DNA of 64,000 bases. Source: Chitinophagaceae bacterium. Its GTDB lineage: Bacteria > Bacteroidota > Bacteroidia > Chitinophagales > Chitinophagaceae. The position numbers and the translations under genes are program-made. Of this stretch, positions 55,752-64,000 are shown one piece after another. Below the pieces are notes generated by a model. It was not told where the DNA came from. It saw only the letters and a list, made by a program, of their open reading frames with translations, and ran no database searches. Each line of letters begins with the position of its first letter. Position 1 is the stretch's first letter. The stretch lies in assembly GCA_028288595.1 (NCBI GenBank), contig JAQBNK010000027.1, positions 1 through 64,000 on the forward strand. The letters are read 5' to 3'.

Positions 55752-57011
55752 CTAGACACTCAACCGAAAAGCATATTCCATTCTTTCTTGCTCTGCTTTC
55801 GAAATCTTATAGTGAATCGCTCTTTTTCTCCATGTAGCTATAACTTTTTGTATCCCGGTTATTATGCTTTTTGCTTCCTCCTGTTTTAGTCTGCAGTAGT
55901 CAGCTATTTCCAAAGCAAGATCGAGATCAAGAGCGTTATTATCCCCTGTTATGTTCAAACATAATTCAACACCATATTCATTGGGATTGATGTCATAAGC
56001 TGGGGATAAAATCCACCCATTTGATGTTAAGATAAAGCCATGGTTTCTTAGATGGTCATCCGTATTGCTGACACAAATGCTGAAAACGATCCTGCGCCAT
56101 AATTCATGAAGATCTTCTTGTGCCTGTGCACCATGTTTTGTTATAAATTCTATTATTTCAAGATAACCAGCTGCACCAGCATCTTCTCCATCTTTATGTC
56201 CTAAAAGTGTCATAGCAGATGCGAAGTGAATTCTTTCACCATTGACACGATCGAATCTTTTTGTAAGGTAGGTATGGTATTTATTATTGAACTTTTTTAC
56301 CGTTCCTTCTGCTACCCGGATGCCAGCCATACTTCCTAATTCGTTTACTACCATTTCCCATGCCGCTACATCTTTCTCATCATTCTTACTTGGGAACTTC
56401 GCAATCCACAGGCCATTGTTCTTATCTATTACACTTGCTTTAGGTCTTGCACCTCCCAGTGAAGAACCAGGAGCAATGAGCATGTTCAGCCATTTGAGGT
56501 ATTCTGGATCATCTGTGTTATCTTCTTCAAACTTTATACTGGCTTGTCCCAATTCGGAAAGTGAAGTCCATGGTGGTGATGCCATCTCTTTATTATCGTT
56601 CAGATAAGGACCATCAGCATCTACTTTAAAACGTAATGCACCCATCCGGTGAGAGTCAAAGACACCCAATAAAAAATCAGACTCCAGTAGTTTTTTTGGA
56701 GGACGGTTTTCTTGTTTAGCTATCACGGCTTCTCTTCGTTGCATCAAAATTCTACCCCACCTGTCGGGACAAGAATCGAGAAACACACCGAAGTTCGTTT
56801 TATCATCTCTTGGATAATAAGCACCTGAATACATCTGCAGATCAGCATCGATCATTTGTGAAAAACCTGACTTTAACCAGTCCTCCATATATTCAAAAGC
56901 AAAAGTTTCCTTACCCTTAGCTGAAGTGGCAGTAAGCTTACCCATTTCTTTAGGCCCATCCAAGCCTTGCCAATGGGCAAAAACCCGTATTTCTTTTTTA
57001 GTATTCGCCAT
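55752..57011 (-). CDS. hipA: HipA-family Ser/Thr kinase toxin
   Basis: This 419-aa protein has the HipA kinase layout. The N-terminal segment shows DSCPDRWGRILM (about 80), and the SSLGGARPKASV loop near residue 185 carries the likely autophosphorylated serine. The catalytic SNTDDHLRNHGF is about residue 315 and the metal-binding AYDINP about 338. It phosphorylates a target such as a tRNA synthetase in known members. It is two bases downstream of the HipB-like gene, completing a type II toxin-antitoxin pair. Confidence 0.92.
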   Translation of the reverse strand: MANTKKEIRVFAHWQGLDGPKEMGKLTATSAKGKETFAFEYMEDWLKSGFSQMIDADLQMYSGAYYPRDDKTNFGVFLDSCPDRWGRILMQRREAVIAKQENRPPKKLLESDFLLGVFDSHRMGALRFKVDADGPYLNDNKEMASPPWTSLSELGQASIKFEEDNTDDPEYLKWLNMLIAPGSSLGGARPKASVIDKNNGLWIAKFPSKNDEKDVAAWEMVVNELGSMAGIRVAEGTVKKFNNKYHTYLTKRFDRVNGERIHFASAMTLLGHKDGEDAGAAGYLEIIEFITKHGAQAQEDLHELWRRIVFSICVSNTDDHLRNHGFILTSNGWILSPAYDINPNEYGVELCLNITGDNNALDLDLALEIADYCRLKQEEAKSIITGIQKVIATWRKRAIHYKISKAEQERMEYAFRLSV

Positions 57012-57013
57012 GG

Positions 57014-57331
57014 CTATTTTTCTTTCTTTGGTGCCCTTTCTTTAACTACCAATTCAGCATCCTGAAGCTTTCTGCCTAATGCATCATCAATTCCTAATTG
57101 TAAGAGATCTTTTTCTAAACCCAGGACAAATAATACCCTGGCATAAGCACCCATGGCAACCCCCGGAGTTCCTTTCTCTATAGAAAGCAAGGTAGGGCGA
57201 CTAATATTGGCTCTTTCTGCTACTTGCTCTGCCGATAGCTTTCTGCGCAGCCGGGCCAGTTTTATATTCTCCCCCAATTCTTCTAAAATCTTTTTTAGAG
57301 AAGGTATGAGCCTTCCTTTTTTGTCAGTCAT
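57014..57331 (-). CDS. hipB: HipB-like HTH antitoxin
   Basis: This 105-aa Xre-type DNA-binding protein has the helix-turn-helix LARLRRKLSAEQVAERANIS followed by RPTLLSIEKG (about residues 21-50). It sits just before hipA, as antitoxins of this kind do, and should repress its own promoter. Inverted TTTACA/TGTAAA sites lie directly upstream. Confidence 0.9.
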   Translation of the reverse strand: MTDKKGRLIPSLKKILEELGENIKLARLRRKLSAEQVAERANISRPTLLSIEKGTPGVAMGAYARVLFVLGLEKDLLQLGIDDALGRKLQDAELVVKERAPKKEK

Positions 57332-57575: not shown

Positions 57576-59633
57576 TTAATAAACAACTTCAATTTTTTCC
57601 ATGTTACTATACCCTGCCGTTTTATAGATCGCTTTGATATAATAGGTGTAGACTGAATTTAGCTTTACATCGTTGTCGTCAAATATTTTTTTATCAGCGG
57701 GTATTGTAGCAATTAAGCTGACATCCTGATCATTATTATTTACGGAACGATAGATTATATATTCCTGTATATCTGTTTTAGTAACACTCCAATTTAATTC
57801 GATGTATTGTTTGTCATGAGACACATAGGCATTAAGGTTGTTGATTGCTTTATTTTTAGCATCTGCTTTTGCGACCTTTACATTGAATGGGGCTGAAAAA
57901 TTGCTTTTCAGGTTTCCAAAATCAACCGCCTGAATTTTATAGGCATAATCAGTAGCGCCCTGTATGTTTTTATCTAAATAGCTAGTGTCTCCGTTACTTA
58001 ACTCCACCAATTGTTTCCACGCTGATGAACTGTCTGTTCCATCTTTCCTGAATAACAAATAATTTTTTACATCAGAACTAAAGCTTTTTGCCCAATTGAC
58101 CTGTATTGATTTGTTTTCAACTACGGCGATATTTTTAATACTGGCTGGTGCTGGTGGTATCGTATCCGGCCTGTTTATATGGATCGAATCAGACTGGGCA
58201 GATTCATTAAATCGATTATCAAGAGCGACAATCCTGTAGTACACATTTGAATTCAGCTGGTTTAAAGAAAGTGTGTCTTTGAAACCCGTTGTAGCAAAAG
58301 GCGTCCCGTTTAAAACCGCATAACTTTTGCGGTTGGTAAATGAGCGGAAAATCCGATACCCTAAAAAATCGGGTTCGGTATTCATTTTCCATTTTAATGT
58401 CACCACTCCTTTGTTATCAACTGTTCCAATTAATCCTTTTGGAACAGCTGGTGGAATAGAATCCTTCAACTGATACAGATAAGGAGCAGATTCCATTACC
58501 TGATCCCGTTTAACTCCCATTGCTTTAATGACGAAATAATTCGAAGGGTCAGGCTTATAATCAAACACTGCCCTCAGATCTGTTCTGACCGGGAATTCAA
58601 GGACTTTATGATAAGAAGAATCCAGGTTTGTTTTTGACACCCATATCTCATACCCGCGAACAAGTTTCTTTACCGAATCGGGCATTGACCAGGCTAGTAT
58701 GAATTTCTTTTCAAGCGTATCAACAGTAAGTATGGTTGGTACTGCGCTTAAATCATTTGAACATGAACCGGATACTACAGCACCGGGGGGACTTTCTATC
58801 CCGAACATATTGGTCCCTTTTATTCTGTAATAATACACCTGATCGTTTTCCAGGCCCTTATCCTGGTATCGCATTATTTTCTTGGAAGGATCAGGCTCTT
58901 TAGTGTTGCCATCTTGTAAACTAGATATTAAGGGGTGATCGGTTAACGGGGTAAAATTGACGCTATCTTCAGAACGTTCTACTATCACTGCAAAATAATC
59001 ACCCATCACCGGTTTTATATCCCATTTCAGATTGGCTACCCGGTTACCAAAGTCTACTTGTAAAGCAGGCATCACAGGCATATTATTGGGTTCCTGAACA
59101 GAATATACAGCCAGTTTTTGTTTTATGGCATCAACATTTGCTACACTAACGCGGTAAGTATATTTTACTCCGCTTACTATTGTTGAATCTACAAACAAGG
59201 ATCCGGCAAGTATTGCATTTTCTCTTTTGTAAGATGATTGCACGATAAACATCGTATATAAAGCGTCCTCTGACTTTTCGGCATCAGGTTGTGAATAATC
59301 AGGTTGATGGTTTACAAAGAGCATTGTTTGATAGGCCGAACTTTTCTTATCATATTTATCTGCCTCTGTTTCGGAAATAGGTTTAATAGGTTCATTATTT
59401 AGCTTTACAAAACTACCATTAATGCCTCCCGCTCTTTCAATATTAAAGCCCAGTTTATTTGCCGAATGCCACTGAGTAGCATTTCCTAAAAACCAGCGCA
59501 GGTAAACTTTATTATTTACCTTAAAGGCTATCAGTTTAACTTCAAAATTATCCTTCCCGGTTTGTGCAAAACCTGAAAGAACAAAACATAGACAGAGTAC
59601 AGAAAGTATAACCCTGCCATAATTTTTATTCAT
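57576..59633 (-). CDS. Secreted protein with fibronectin-type-III-like domains
   Basis: This 685-aa protein has a signal peptide (MNKNYGRVILSVLCLCFVLSG, with cleavage near residue 25). Several Fn3-like domains follow, recognised by repeated Y(T/Y)Y-(R/K)I or Y-Y-I-K segments (VYYRIKG, VYYRIVA, YAYKIQAVD, YTYYIKA). The ATG giving MNKNYG is preferred over one 15 codons upstream. No C-terminal type IX sorting domain is evident. It begins 51 bases after the very large protein on the same strand, so the two are probably co-expressed. Confidence 0.8.
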   Translation of the reverse strand: MNKNYGRVILSVLCLCFVLSGFAQTGKDNFEVKLIAFKVNNKVYLRWFLGNATQWHSANKLGFNIERAGGINGSFVKLNNEPIKPISETEADKYDKKSSAYQTMLFVNHQPDYSQPDAEKSEDALYTMFIVQSSYKRENAILAGSLFVDSTIVSGVKYTYRVSVANVDAIKQKLAVYSVQEPNNMPVMPALQVDFGNRVANLKWDIKPVMGDYFAVIVERSEDSVNFTPLTDHPLISSLQDGNTKEPDPSKKIMRYQDKGLENDQVYYYRIKGTNMFGIESPPGAVVSGSCSNDLSAVPTILTVDTLEKKFILAWSMPDSVKKLVRGYEIWVSKTNLDSSYHKVLEFPVRTDLRAVFDYKPDPSNYFVIKAMGVKRDQVMESAPYLYQLKDSIPPAVPKGLIGTVDNKGVVTLKWKMNTEPDFLGYRIFRSFTNRKSYAVLNGTPFATTGFKDTLSLNQLNSNVYYRIVALDNRFNESAQSDSIHINRPDTIPPAPASIKNIAVVENKSIQVNWAKSFSSDVKNYLLFRKDGTDSSSAWKQLVELSNGDTSYLDKNIQGATDYAYKIQAVDFGNLKSNFSAPFNVKVAKADAKNKAINNLNAYVSHDKQYIELNWSVTKTDIQEYIIYRSVNNNDQDVSLIATIPADKKIFDDNDVKLNSVYTYYIKAIYKTAGYSNMEKIEVVY

Positions 59634-59683
59634 ACAATAGCTGGGAACGCGAATTATGATTTCATTTAGTGCTCTCATTATTA

Positions 59684-62600
59684 TTATTTATCGTCCAATG
59701 AACAATACGTCCCGGTTTCCATATTTACATCGAAGGAACCATTCCACGATAACCCGCAACAACCAACACTATATTTTACATTCAAAGCTCCTTTAAAATA
59801 TATAGGATTAGGGGCTCTCACTTCAAGGTTTGCAGTGATACTACCGCTTATTACAGAAAATGAAACGTTCTGACCAAAAACTGTAAACTTAATACCAGCT
59901 TCAGCTGCCAGATATGCCGATAAATTACCTTTCCCATACCAGCCATACAGACCTGCTGGTTGGTTAGTAGAGCTACAGATAAATCCATCTTTGTGTTTAA
60001 TCGTAATATCATAGGCAAGCCCACCACCAATTGATGCATACGCCCCGCCACCAGACCAGTCTAACTGTACTTTCACCCCAAAGCCATGTTTTACAACGAT
60101 ATCAGAACCATCGCTTTGAAGTGCATTCGTTGCCTGGAAATAAGTAGTAGCTCTCCCGGTAATAGGCCCCATATTCATGGTCAAAGCCATGGGATTATCT
60201 TTCGTTCCCAGGTTTATATACCAGGTTTTCTTCGAGTAATATATTTCTCCCGAACCGTCCCTTTTATTTTCATTTCCACCTTCAAACAATGTAGTACTGC
60301 CGGTTTCAAGAGAAGCATATACATCCATGTTAAAACTGAGCACCTCATTTGCGAGGTCTACCTTGGCTAAAAAATTACCCCAGAATGGCGGGCTTCCGTC
60401 GGGCCTCGTTCCAACAGGCATTACGGCATTGCGCTTTTCCGGTGGCTGCGCTTTTTCAATTGAATCAAGCTTGGCAACATCGGCTTCGTCTAACCATTCT
60501 TTTGCTTTCTTTAAAGCCTCTGCATCTGCTTTAACAGCATCTAACTTATCCTGGCCGGGTTGCGCCAAATAGGTATACTTTCCGTTTTGATACTCCGGGC
60601 CATATAGAGTTATCACCCGTGGCTCTGATTCTGACTTGTGGTTATATATTTTCAGAGACGCAGCATCCGGATTGTTAACCATAAAAAATGCTGCGGGCAG
60701 TGTACTTCCCGAAGGTGCAGCAGAGACAGTAGTAGTATATTTTTTATTAACGTAATAGCGCTGTTCGGGTGTTACCGTAATAACAGGTCCGCCATTGTTA
60801 GAAAGGATATTTTCTGAAATCAAAGCACTGTCCTGCCTGAACACTGAGCTGTCCTGTTGTAACTGCGCAGTAAACGCCTCCAGGTTTGTTTGGGCATTTT
60901 TCTGTAATTGCAAAGCGTCTTTATACTCCTGTGAATTAGGATTTGATTTTAGCTGGGCAACTTTGGCATTGGCAGCGGTTAAAGCGCTTGACATGGCAGA
61001 TTTGACGGCCGTATCCTGTTTTATTTTCTCTGCCGACTCTGCGAGGGCCAGTTTATTGAGGTTATCCTGTAAAGTAGCAGCCAATGCATTAAGTGAATCG
61101 GAAGATTTTATCAATGCCTTTTCCGCTGCAGTAAGTACAACCCCGGTTGCCAGTTTAACCCTCGGTCCCTTAGCCTTTTGAGCAGTACTTGCGGCTTCGC
61201 TGATTGTGACGAGGTTATTGAATTTGGTGAGTACGGTATTATAGGTACTCAATTTTTCATTGTATATAGCTGTCTTACTGGTAGCGATATTATCCAAAGG
61301 CGTTGCTACATTTTTAGAATACCTGTCTAATGAATCAACCAAATTGTTTCTTTTATTGGCTATTTCATTATAATAAATCATTTCAGTCTTTATGCTGCTG
61401 ATCAAATTACTCTTACCCTTTTTTGCAATATCCCATTGATCGCTCAGTATATCATAGACATCATAAATTAAATTAGCGCTATCACTCAACTTGGTAAGCC
61501 TTTCTTCCAAAACCGCTAAAACAGCAGTCAGGCTATCCCTTTTCTTTTTCCAGTCATTAATCATAACCCTGTTCTTAGCTGTATCCGTACCAATTTTGCA
61601 TCTCACCATGTTTGAATACGGGTGTTCGGCGCAAAGCTTACAATCCTTATATAATGTAGAAGTAATTTTAAGTTCATTCGTTTCTTTTCTGACTGGGATC
61701 GTAAGCAGTAATGCCGCATTTTTATCAGCAAAAACAGAATCTTTTACTTTTTGTATCCGGGTAGCTGTAGGTATACTGTAGTTGCCTTTTTTCGTACTGG
61801 TAATATCAATGGTATTATAGGGAATATTGAGTATTTCGCAAACCTTTGGCCATGCAACTTTATCAGCATCATTCAGGTAACTTCTGAAAATGTTATGATT
61901 TTGTACCGGGATATTCTGATAGTTACCATCGCCGCTCGATTGCGTATTATGTATGATTTCCGTGAGAAGAGCCACCAAAGAATCGGGTCCATGTTGATTT
62001 TTAAGCGCAATTTTTCTTTCTCTATCTGCGGTTTCCATGTCTTGTTTGGCAATTAACAATTGCTGGGAAACATCAGTAAGTTCAGCATTATCACCTTCTT
62101 CCAGGACATCGGAAATTTCATTCGTTAGCTCATCTGCCGCATTAGGTTTGTCAGCTTCTACTTCAGGATCATCCCCACTTCCTTCAACATATTCCAGTTC
62201 ATCATCATCATCTTCTTTTTCTTCTTCTACTTCGCCCTGTTTTTTAGTTTTGTTTTTTACTTTATATTTTATAACCGGGTTTCCTTTTTTATCCAATATG
62301 AGATTACCCTTTTTATCTTTTAAAACTTTCGGTTGAATCAGTTGTACTTGGGTTTCAAAAGTGGCGTTGCCCTTATCATCCAGTACAGGTTTACCTTTGT
62401 CGTCCAGAACAGGAATAGTGACTGTTTTACGGGTTGTGTTAACCATGATAGGGTCACCGGACGGATCCAATATTGGTTTACCGGATTTCGTTGTAGCAGC
62501 ACGGCTTGTAGTCTTGGTGGCCGTAGTTGTTTGAATCGCTTTCCCGTTTTTGTCTAACAGGGCTTTTCCTGATTTGTCTTTAAATGCAGTTGCCGTGGTT

Positions 62601-64000
62601 TTCTCCGTGGTTTTAGAAACCAGCGGCTTGCCTTTTTTGGTAGTAAGCGGTTTACCGGTTTTATCTACTAAGGGTTTGGATGTAATTTTAGGCGCTGCTG
62701 CTGTAACTGTTTGTGCCGGCTTTACTGTTTTAACAGTTTTTACAGGAGGTGCTTTTGCAGCAGCATCTGCAAGGCGGGATGCCTGCGTTGTTTTGTTACC
62801 TTTTGTTAGCGGAGTAATTTTGTTTTTTTCACTCTTCTCATCTACACCGGTTGAAAAGAACTGCGCATTCCCGCTGATAGAAAATTCATCTACGCCCCAG
62901 TTCTTATTAAATACAATTTCAATGCCTCCCCAACCAGACACAACGGTTTTTGTTACGAGTGCCAGAAATACACCGGCCCGCAGCCTCAAAAATGAGCTTT
63001 CATTTGGAATATAAGAAACGCCGGATGCGGTAATCGGATGTTCGTTATCGGGTGGAACAGGATCCATTCTATAGGTGGCGCCCCCACTGAAACCCTGTAT
63101 TTCGATAATGTTAAACAGTTTGATGTTTAGTCCCTTCGCATACGCATCAACATTCCAGTATGAAAACGAAGACCCGTCACTGTTGTATTTATTGCCGAAC
63201 ATTGCACCAGCCTTCACTTCTATAGTAGATACTTTCAATTTCACTACCCCATTAAAGCCCTTTCCATAAATGGAATCGTTCATGAAATCCAGGGTGCCGT
63301 CAAAGGAAACTTTACCAAATTCGGCATTGATCTTTATCTGGGTTAATTTGTATGAATCATATTTCCATTCACGTTTTGCCGTATCGTACCTGCTATAAAT
63401 ATCAAAGCCTGTTCCTCCTCCTATTTTACCATCCATTAGCTGCACATTTGCATCGAAATGCAAACAGGAATATTCTGCGTTGGCGTCATTTTTTACAGGC
63501 CGCTTAGCCTGGTATTCCACACTCACATCTGCACTAAAGCCCCCTATCTGCAATTGAGAAGCAGCACCCATTGACTTAACCGCCATGAATGGAGCTTCCG
63601 TTTGTAAAACCAATTCTTCAAAACTGGCATCGTCTATTGCAAAACTGACTTTGGATTTTTTAGCCTCCTCTTTCTTAGGAATGGGATCTAGTTTACCCCC
63701 GTTAAAAGAAAAACTGAATTTTCCCGACAAGTTAACTTTTGGCAGGAGTTTATTATCCTTGACAATTAATGTGAGATCAAAGGCAGGATCCACTAACAGA
63801 TATCCTTTCCACATATCTGCCTTGATACCATTGATCTCCCCGTGGGTTACATCAAAACCGCCGTCACTGTTCAGGGAGGCGGTATAGCCTATGCCTGATT
63901 GGTCACTGGTCTTATCTTCTATCGGCAGTACAAGTTTCCCCGAAAAATTTCCCTTTGCAATGACACCTTTCTGTATGTCCAGTTCGAATTTGTCAATACT
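59684..64000 (-). CDS. Very large secreted protein, C-terminal part (partial)
   Basis: The frame is open to the right edge, so at least 1,438 residues are encoded here and the N-terminus lies outside. Upstream of the first internal ATG the frame continues without a stop. From left to right in the protein there is a beta-rich region, then a repeat array built on D-K-x-G-K-P-(L/I) (about ten copies). An acidic, low-complexity stretch, a coiled-coil region and a Cys-containing beta domain ending GTYCSLDDK follow. No known family was recognised. It is probably a surface or secreted structural protein, a guess based on composition. Confidence 0.8.
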   Translation of the reverse strand, partial: SIDKFELDIQKGVIAKGNFSGKLVLPIEDKTSDQSGIGYTASLNSDGGFDVTHGEINGIKADMWKGYLLVDPAFDLTLIVKDNKLLPKVNLSGKFSFSFNGGKLDPIPKKEEAKKSKVSFAIDDASFEELVLQTEAPFMAVKSMGAASQLQIGGFSADVSVEYQAKRPVKNDANAEYSCLHFDANVQLMDGKIGGGTGFDIYSRYDTAKREWKYDSYKLTQIKINAEFGKVSFDGTLDFMNDSIYGKGFNGVVKLKVSTIEVKAGAMFGNKYNSDGSSFSYWNVDAYAKGLNIKLFNIIEIQGFSGGATYRMDPVPPDNEHPITASGVSYIPNESSFLRLRAGVFLALVTKTVVSGWGGIEIVFNKNWGVDEFSISGNAQFFSTGVDEKSEKNKITPLTKGNKTTQASRLADAAAKAPPVKTVKTVKPAQTVTAAAPKITSKPLVDKTGKPLTTKKGKPLVSKTTEKTTATAFKDKSGKALLDKNGKAIQTTTATKTTSRAATTKSGKPILDPSGDPIMVNTTRKTVTIPVLDDKGKPVLDDKGNATFETQVQLIQPKVLKDKKGNLILDKKGNPVIKYKVKNKTKKQGEVEEEKEDDDDELEYVEGSGDDPEVEADKPNAADELTNEISDVLEEGDNAELTDVSQQLLIAKQDMETADRERKIALKNQHGPDSLVALLTEIIHNTQSSGDGNYQNIPVQNHNIFRSYLNDADKVAWPKVCEILNIPYNTIDITSTKKGNYSIPTATRIQKVKDSVFADKNAALLLTIPVRKETNELKITSTLYKDCKLCAEHPYSNMVRCKIGTDTAKNRVMINDWKKKRDSLTAVLAVLEERLTKLSDSANLIYDVYDILSDQWDIAKKGKSNLISSIKTEMIYYNEIANKRNNLVDSLDRYSKNVATPLDNIATSKTAIYNEKLSTYNTVLTKFNNLVTISEAASTAQKAKGPRVKLATGVVLTAAEKALIKSSDSLNALAATLQDNLNKLALAESAEKIKQDTAVKSAMSSALTAANAKVAQLKSNPNSQEYKDALQLQKNAQTNLEAFTAQLQQDSSVFRQDSALISENILSNNGGPVITVTPEQRYYVNKKYTTTVSAAPSGSTLPAAFFMVNNPDAASLKIYNHKSESEPRVITLYGPEYQNGKYTYLAQPGQDKLDAVKADAEALKKAKEWLDEADVAKLDSIEKAQPPEKRNAVMPVGTRPDGSPPFWGNFLAKVDLANEVLSFNMDVYASLETGSTTLFEGGNENKRDGSGEIYYSKKTWYINLGTKDNPMALTMNMGPITGRATTYFQATNALQSDGSDIVVKHGFGVKVQLDWSGGGAYASIGGGLAYDITIKHKDGFICSSTNQPAGLYGWYGKGNLSAYLAAEAGIKFTVFGQNVSFSVISGSITANLEVRAPNPIYFKGALNVKYSVGCCGLSWNGSFDVNMETGTYCSLDDK

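What the first reader, a model, noticed from the sequence alone, without database searches (positions are those of the whole stretch)
62150..62700. Repeat array D-K-x-G-K-P-L in the large terminal protein
Within the large secreted protein about ten units match (D/K)-x-x-G-(K/N/D)-(P/A)-(L/I/V). They are spaced unevenly between Thr/Lys/Ala-rich segments, and are followed by a run of Asp/Glu. It could be a cell-wall- or calcium-binding low-complexity linker, and I know no named family for it.
Basis: partly seen in the sequence, partly recalled or inferred. Interest (0 to 1): 0.5.

Follow-up and report, generated by a model that had tools for sequence, protein, structure and literature searches.

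The report
Strict 29-residue repeat in giant protein
A large bacterial protein that is probably exported carries five equal-length copies of a 29-residue, turn-rich, positively charged repeat followed by a negatively charged stretch, set between two conserved parts of the protein, where it most likely acts as a structured spacer.

Summary
The repeat is real but strictly periodic, not uneven. On the minus strand, five copies of a 29-residue unit (window 62231-62665) each carry two 8-residue turns D-K-x-G-K-P-(I/L/V). All 20 turn glycines are kept in this protein and its one close orthologue (L003). Copies within a protein share only 21-45% identity, yet none has an insertion or deletion. The array evolves as slowly as the conserved N-terminal domain (dN 0.14 against 0.12), about half as fast as the helical-looking region behind it (0.29). 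A tract of net charge -23 follows the +19 array. Of 30 other relatives examined, 0 have the turn pair, and 0 have a 50-residue window below -10. The 1815-residue protein lies in a tight operon (barrel, fn486, this protein, Fn3-type protein). fn486 resembles, through homologues, the N-terminal region of TANFOR proteins, a described class of polymorphic toxins; all TANFOR matches are below the curated cut-off, and no toxin domain was found here. No Pfam, NCBIfam or PDB sequence family covers the array; calcium loops are disfavoured. Best reading: a structured, beta-turn-rich, charge-balanced spacer. AlphaFold2 gives a 29-periodic beta model of low confidence. A similar doublet array occurs in Helicobacter ComB10.

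The parts
62231..62665 (-). Repeat array: five 29-residue units (protein residues 823-967). Unit 1 62579-62665, unit 2 62492-62578, unit 3 62405-62491, unit 4 62318-62404, unit 5 62231-62317; each = two 8-residue turns (DKxGKP-hydrophobic) plus a 13-residue Thr/Lys-rich stretch
62666..62776 (-). Thr/Lys/Ala/Pro-rich basic lead-in (residues 786-822, net charge +6)
62069..62230 (-). Acidic tract (residues 968-1021; net charge -23 over residues 968-1020)
60419..62068 (-). Helical-looking insert region (residues 1022-1571); among 32 giants examined, matched otherwise only in L003 (full) and L056 and L059 (in part)
   Evidence: helicity judged from the sequence, not predicted
59684..60418 (-). Conserved C-terminal domain of the family (residues 1572-1815) and stop codon
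62855..64000 (-). Conserved N-terminal domain (residues 92-759; its first part lies beyond the window, to contig position 64858)
59684..64000 (-). Whole gene as far as it lies in the window; start codon at contig C65 position 65131, 1815 aa in all
57576..59678 (-). Downstream operon gene, 700 aa, companion of Fn3 type (5 bases after the large gene); homologues in 27 of 29 relative loci
   Evidence: Pfam fn3 above cut-off in the orthologue, but no Pfam family at E 0.001 or better in this copy

Best explanation
The array is a structured, beta-turn-rich spacer. Each 29-residue unit makes two tight Gly turns 8 residues apart and one longer Thr/Lys-rich extended stretch, so five units give a rod or small sheet of fixed length. 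With the acidic tract behind it, which balances its charge, it separates the conserved N-terminal body from the helical-looking and C-terminal parts of an exported giant protein. That protein works with its operon partners (an outer-membrane-barrel-like protein, fn486 with its TANFOR-like relatives, and an Fn3-type protein) in a surface system of the type described for TANFOR polymorphic toxins. Shown: the period, its conservation, the low dN, the insert position, the charge pairing and the gene order. Inferred: beta structure, export, that the partners form one system, the spacer role, and electrostatic contact between array and acidic tract.
For: Exact 29-residue period in five of five units and in the orthologue; unit i matches unit i of L003 at 69-90% but other units at 21-52%, so the array predates the split. 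dN 0.139, dS 1.38, no indel in 145 residues, against dN 0.124 for the N domain, 0.287 for the helical-looking region and 0.295 for the acidic tract. Position: 812 aa lie between the N and C domains; 27 of 31 giants have 60 aa or fewer there. L056 and L059 share the helical-looking insert but have linkers of 59 and 72 aa without array or acidic tract; the four form one clade, support 1.0. 0 of 30 other relatives have the turn pair, and their most acidic 50-residue windows are -5 to -10 against -22 here. Charge: array +19 in both species; acidic tract -23 and -22 although only 55% identical. AlphaFold2: the array is the only long stretch of a 936-residue model above pLDDT 50 (10-residue means 51-69), with 29-periodic strands. 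Gene order: tight operon; fn486 matches 9 proteins that hit the TANFOR model.
Against: The structure model has low confidence and only two rows; AlphaFold2 is reported to over-predict beta-solenoids for repeats (abstract of PMC11795689). Alternation of hydrophobic and polar residues in the long stretch is not significant (p 0.11-0.28). Only two species are known to carry the array, so the selection estimate rests on one pair with high dS. None of the four genomes of this clade has a direct TANFOR hit. No partner or ligand is known. Export is inferred from the look of the N-terminus only.
Confidence: 0.5

Rival explanations
1. A flexible, disordered, charge-patterned linker whose repeats arose by duplication and have no fold of their own.
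For: Rich in Lys, Thr, Pro and Gly; followed by an acidic tract; AlphaFold2 confidence is low and the method is biased towards solenoids; no significant strand alternation.
Against: Exact unit length kept at 21-45% identity between units, all 20 turn Gly kept, dN as low as the conserved N domain.
Confidence: 0.27
2. A polyanion-binding module: the lysine-rich repeat binds lipopolysaccharide, capsule, wall polymer or nucleic acid, and the acidic tract masks it until release.
For: Net charge +19 on 145 residues next to -23 on 53, in much the same numbers in both species.
Against: No wall- or polymer-binding family above cut-off; no ligand tested.
Confidence: 0.15
3. A calcium-binding repeat of the EF-hand, dockerin or RTX kind.
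For: DKDG and DKNG look like the start of an EF-hand loop (recalled).
Against: 0 of 20 turns have D/N at positions 1, 3 and 5; position 6 is Gly in 0 of 20; position 5 is Lys in 12 of 20.
Confidence: 0.03

Closest known systems
TANFOR-domain polymorphic toxins of Bacteroidetes (Jana, Salomon and Bosis 2020, PMC7073777; NCBIfam TIGR02542)
   Same: Gene neighbourhood of a similar type: fn486, which matches the N-terminal regions of TANFOR-hit proteins; an Fn3-type gene; in L003 an upstream repeat protein with a weak T9SS sorting tail; T9SS core protein SprA in the genome.
   Different: TIGR02542 does not hit this protein, this genome or the other three genomes of its clade, and the hits in relatives are all under the curated cut-off. 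The giant ends at its conserved C domain; no toxin family was found in it.
Linker of plasmid-borne ComB10 of Helicobacter cinaedi (WP_197557873.1, annotated as a DNA type IV secretion protein)
   Same: Doublets of the same turn 8 residues apart (for example LDKAGKPILDKNGKPI), followed by a charged, helical-looking segment; the two arrays score 57 and 52 bits against a best of 24.6 in 1000 shuffles.
   Different: Unrelated host protein and phylum; doublets 38, 32 and 32 residues apart, not 29. I did not test it for an acidic tract. Common origin and convergence cannot be told apart here.
Beta-solenoid repeats of bacterial adhesins (recalled class)
   Same: Fixed coil-sized period, Gly turns, Thr-rich stretches; low-confidence model with 29-periodic strands.
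   Different: Parallel stacking is not shown; the model is too weak to decide.

Membership tests
TANFOR polymorphic toxin (the giant itself) | N-terminal TANFOR domain (TIGR02542) in the same polypeptide | tested here: not met
   NCBIfam scans of the window part and of the full orthologue show no TIGR02542 at E 0.5 or better; no hit in G000 or G712. A region homologous to TANFOR-hit proteins is encoded by the separate upstream gene fn486, which itself has no direct hit.
TANFOR polymorphic toxin (the giant itself) | C-terminal toxin domain, or a toxin and immunity pair next door | tested here: inconclusive
   No toxin family in the giant, but unknown toxins would not show. Downstream lie the Fn3-type gene and then a HipA/HTH pair, which by recall is an intracellular toxin-antitoxin type; L003 has a Fic gene near there instead.
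TANFOR-type gene neighbourhood | T9SS substrate and Fn3 genes close by | tested here: inconclusive
   fn691 of L003 has fn3 above cut-off, fn486 of L003 only below it, fn691 of the window none at E 0.001. TIGR04183 in L003:1-3078 is below cut-off (17.9 against 23 bits) and absent from the L059 counterpart. The window's contig ends before this place.
TANFOR-type gene neighbourhood | Genome carries T9SS | tested here: met
   SprA (TIGR04189) above cut-off in 4 of 4 genomes: G000, G712, G104, G184
EF-hand, dockerin or RTX calcium repeat | D/N ligands at loop positions 1, 3 and 5, Gly at 6 (recalled) | tested here: not met
   0 of 20 turns; 1 of 20 if E and S are counted as ligands
Cell-wall-binding repeats (LysM, choline-binding, PASTA and similar) | Match to a family model above its cut-off | tested here: not met
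   No Pfam or NCBIfam match above its cut-off for the array
Beta-solenoid | Parallel beta coils of constant length stacked on each other | tested here: inconclusive
   29-periodic model at 10-residue mean pLDDT 51-69; method reported to be biased; fold comparisons undecided

The most novel reading that the evidence does not exclude
The 8+21-residue double-turn array is an undescribed spacer module of bacterial envelope machines. It appears in unrelated proteins (this giant of a TANFOR-like operon and ComB10 of a type IV secretion system), works as a rod of defined length between a membrane-side body and a helical arm, and here carries its own acidic counter-tract as an electrostatic latch.
Probability: 0.17. 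Interest if true: 0.6.

Novelty: new variant of a known kind. Interest (0 to 1): 0.4.

Why it matters
It shows that an apparently low-complexity patch is a length-exact, conserved repeat with a charge-balancing partner tract. It also links a protein family without a Pfam or NCBIfam match (34 of 294 family genomes, this one included) to operons with TANFOR-like proteins, for which the paper only speculates about the export route. If the giant is the body of that system, the array is a handle for testing its geometry.

Tried and rejected
Calcium binding: disfavoured on ligand positions. Known family: Pfam and NCBIfam gave only short matches to the array, none above a curated cut-off; PHROGs, which has no cut-offs, gave short matches to the turns, best E 7e-6, to phage tail assembly chaperones. 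PDB sequence searches with the orthologue and with profiles of the N domain and C domain gave no match at E 1 or better; the array profile gave 12 at E 10 or better, best E 0.58. Recent DNA duplication: Tandem Repeats Finder sees no 87-base array; short direct repeats at 87- and 174-base spacing remain. Amphipathic strand test: not significant. C-domain model: mean pLDDT 34, unusable. Fold searches of the low-confidence model: no Foldseek match at E 0.001 or better; VIA best Z 5.5 (rmsd 5.0, 84 aligned) lies in the N-domain part; of the 50 rows shown, 12 are confined to the array part, 10 of them outer-membrane barrel chains (best Z 5.1: rmsd 6.1 over 121, 5.1 over 104, 4.7 over 123) and 2 urate oxidase; this shows neither a known nor a new fold. 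Array elsewhere: besides the window's own, one weak hit in 294 family genomes (G054, E 6e-4), which reads as the N-terminal 'VLDKNGQAVEGA' region of a TonB-receptor-like gene (receptor type recalled), so my notebook entry calling it antisense is wrong; none besides itself in 395 phylum genomes; only L003's own genome in 101 genomes drawn around it as its genus; weak partial unit hits in 6 other genomes of 294; none in phages at E 0.001. The genome-contig scan with six peptides of the window protein found only L003; its peptides were not taken from the array, so further carriers may exist. Toxin search in relatives: of 9 TANFOR-like proteins, 7 were scanned with Pfam or NCBIfam, and 7 downstream genes; at E 0.01 they gave Fn3-type matches, TANFOR below cut-off, other matches below cut-off, and one luciferase-like monooxygenase. 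Paper searches: 'TANFOR' gave one relevant paper; one search was for AlphaFold and beta-solenoids; two combined-term searches, for giant Fn3 outer-membrane proteins and for ComB10/VirB10 repeats, listed no title describing this array (listings only).
Full report
What is there. The finding lies in a minus-strand gene that begins outside the window: contig C65 continues to 68354, and the gene runs from 65131 down to 59684, 1815 residues. The N-terminus (MKPLFIKIVLVQILLTCFCNAFG) looks like a Sec signal and holds the six most hydrophobic 19-residue windows of the protein; that it is exported is inference.

The repeat. Turn motifs start at residues 823/831, 852/860, 881/889, 910/918 and 939/947: ten 8-residue turns in five 29-residue units, with an exact period. 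Lag 29 gives the best self-score (1.09; maximum over lags 3-99 in 2000 shuffles 0.43) and lag 58 the next. Over this protein and L003, Gly is kept in 20 of 20 turns, Asp at position 1 in 16 of 20, Pro at position 6 in 13 of 20, and I/L/V/M at position 7 in 18 of 20. Units of one protein share 21-45% identity, units at the same place in the two species 69-90%, and units at different places across the species 21-52%, so the array was complete before the two lineages parted and its copies are not being homogenised. Between the two species the array has dN 0.139, dS 1.38 and no indel in 145 residues; the N domain has dN 0.124, the C domain 0.177, the acidic tract 0.295, the helical-looking region 0.287. 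This is one pair of species, with dS of 0.7 to 2.2 by region, so the ratios are rough.

Charge. The array has net charge +19 in both species, the lead-in +6, and the 53 residues behind it -23 and -22. The acidic tract is only 54.7% identical yet keeps its charge. Among 30 other relatives, 0 have the turn pair and the most acidic 50-residue window of each protein is between -5 and -10, against -22 in both carriers. The array and the acidic tract thus occur together or not at all in the 32 proteins compared.

Where it sits. A profile of the protein finds matches in 34 of 294 genomes of the family, this one included. I examined 31 giants in detail (this one and L003 among them), and L059 later. 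All have both an N domain, about 660 residues or somewhat longer (L020 starts inside it), and a C domain of about 250 (L025 longer, L054 partial). In 27 of 31 the two are 60 residues or fewer apart, in L054 126, and in this protein, L003 and L056 812, 813 and 684 apart; L059 has about 700. This protein, L003, L056 and L059 form a clade with support 1.0 in a tree of 31 sequences, L020 left out. Within it, L056 and L059 have 59 and 72 residues where this protein has 250 between the end of the N part and the helical-looking region. So by parsimony the helical-looking insert came first and the array with its acidic tract later, in the ancestor of this genome and L003, unless it was lost in the other pair. 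A motif scan of all loci then held found the turn pair only in this gene and L003. In 27 of 31 giants the C domain is followed by 215-706 residues; in this protein, L003, L056 and L019 it ends the chain.

The operon. The order is barrel-like gene (about 580 aa), fn486, giant, fn691, with gaps of 1, 22 and 5 bases by the ORF coordinates. 'Barrel' is my reading of the sequence; no Pfam family was found for it in L003. fn691 homologues lie in 27 of 29 relative loci and barrel homologues in 22 of 29 (some loci are cut by contig ends). fn486 matches proteins that hit the TANFOR model TIGR02542 at 9 of 10 loci (the six alignments seen cover nearly all of fn486 and about the first 500 residues of the open frames), and 9 full genes at E 1.8e-12 to 1.7e-49. 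TIGR02542 hits occur in 18 of 30 giant-bearing genomes at E 0.1 or better, none above the curated cut-off of 67 bits. By coordinates, of the 27 rows listed 9 lie inside a giant, 10 near one on the same contig, and 8 elsewhere. None lies in the four genomes of this clade, and fn486 itself gives no direct hit, so 'TANFOR-like' rests on the link through homologues. The paper on TANFOR toxins (PMC7073777; I read the outline and sections 6, 9 and 20) reports SprB, Por secretion tail, PKD and Fn3 domains enriched next to TANFOR genes and T9SS in over 95% of carrier genomes. Here L003 has upstream a repeat protein with a weak Por tail (17.9 bits, cut-off 23); its counterpart in L059 showed none. SprA is above cut-off in 4 of 4 genomes tested, this one included. 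I found no toxin domain in the giant, and among the relatives' TANFOR-like proteins and downstream genes scanned no toxin family either; a toxin function of this operon is not shown.

Structure. AlphaFold2 on L003 residues 90-1025 with the window sequence as second row gave mean pLDDT 34. The only long stretch above 50 is the array (model residues about 733-880, 10-residue means 51-69), with a 29-periodic strand pattern. This is weak: two rows only, and AlphaFold2 tends to fold repeats into unrealistic solenoids (abstract of PMC11795689). An alternation test in the long stretch was not significant. Beta structure is therefore plausible from the turn motif (general knowledge of Gly turns) but not shown. 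Fold comparisons are told under Tried and rejected.

A look-alike. In 72,556 plasmid records the L003 array matches one protein at E 1e-5 or better, ComB10 of Helicobacter cinaedi (E 1e-7). Its linker has the same doublets, 8 residues apart, at distances of 38, 32 and 32 residues. Against 1000 shuffles of the L003 array (best 24.6 bits) the real arrays score 57 and 52. A second H. cinaedi plasmid has a related stretch, 68% identical. VirB10-type proteins span the periplasm (recalled), which fits a spacer role by analogy; descent from a common repeat is not shown.

Conclusion. Most likely the array is a structured, charge-balanced spacer in a probable surface protein of a TANFOR-like operon (0.5), with a disordered linker as main rival (0.27).

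Noticed in passing
window 55752-57331, minus strand: HipA-type gene (HipA_C) with an upstream HTH gene, a HipBA-like pair just downstream of the operon; the L003 locus has a Fic-family gene near there instead.
   Followed up: partly
L003:1-3078 and L059:8797-12888: Upstream of the barrel-like gene lies a long repeat protein, with a weak (below cut-off) T9SS sorting tail in L003 and none found in L059; the window's own contig ends before this place.
   Followed up: partly
L082-L090: Relatives with a split operon carry TANFOR-like proteins of 1057-1978 aa near the giant (L086 on another contig), several followed by genes of 300-370 aa; those scanned had no family except one luciferase-like monooxygenase.
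   Followed up: partly
L019:12319-18001: A protein of at least 1894 aa with an fn486-like N-terminus follows the Fn3-type gene; no Pfam (E 0.01) or NCBIfam (E 1) family.
   Followed up: no
L093: ComB10 of Helicobacter cinaedi plasmids has a doublet-turn repeat in its linker; a second plasmid copy is 68% identical there.
   Followed up: partly
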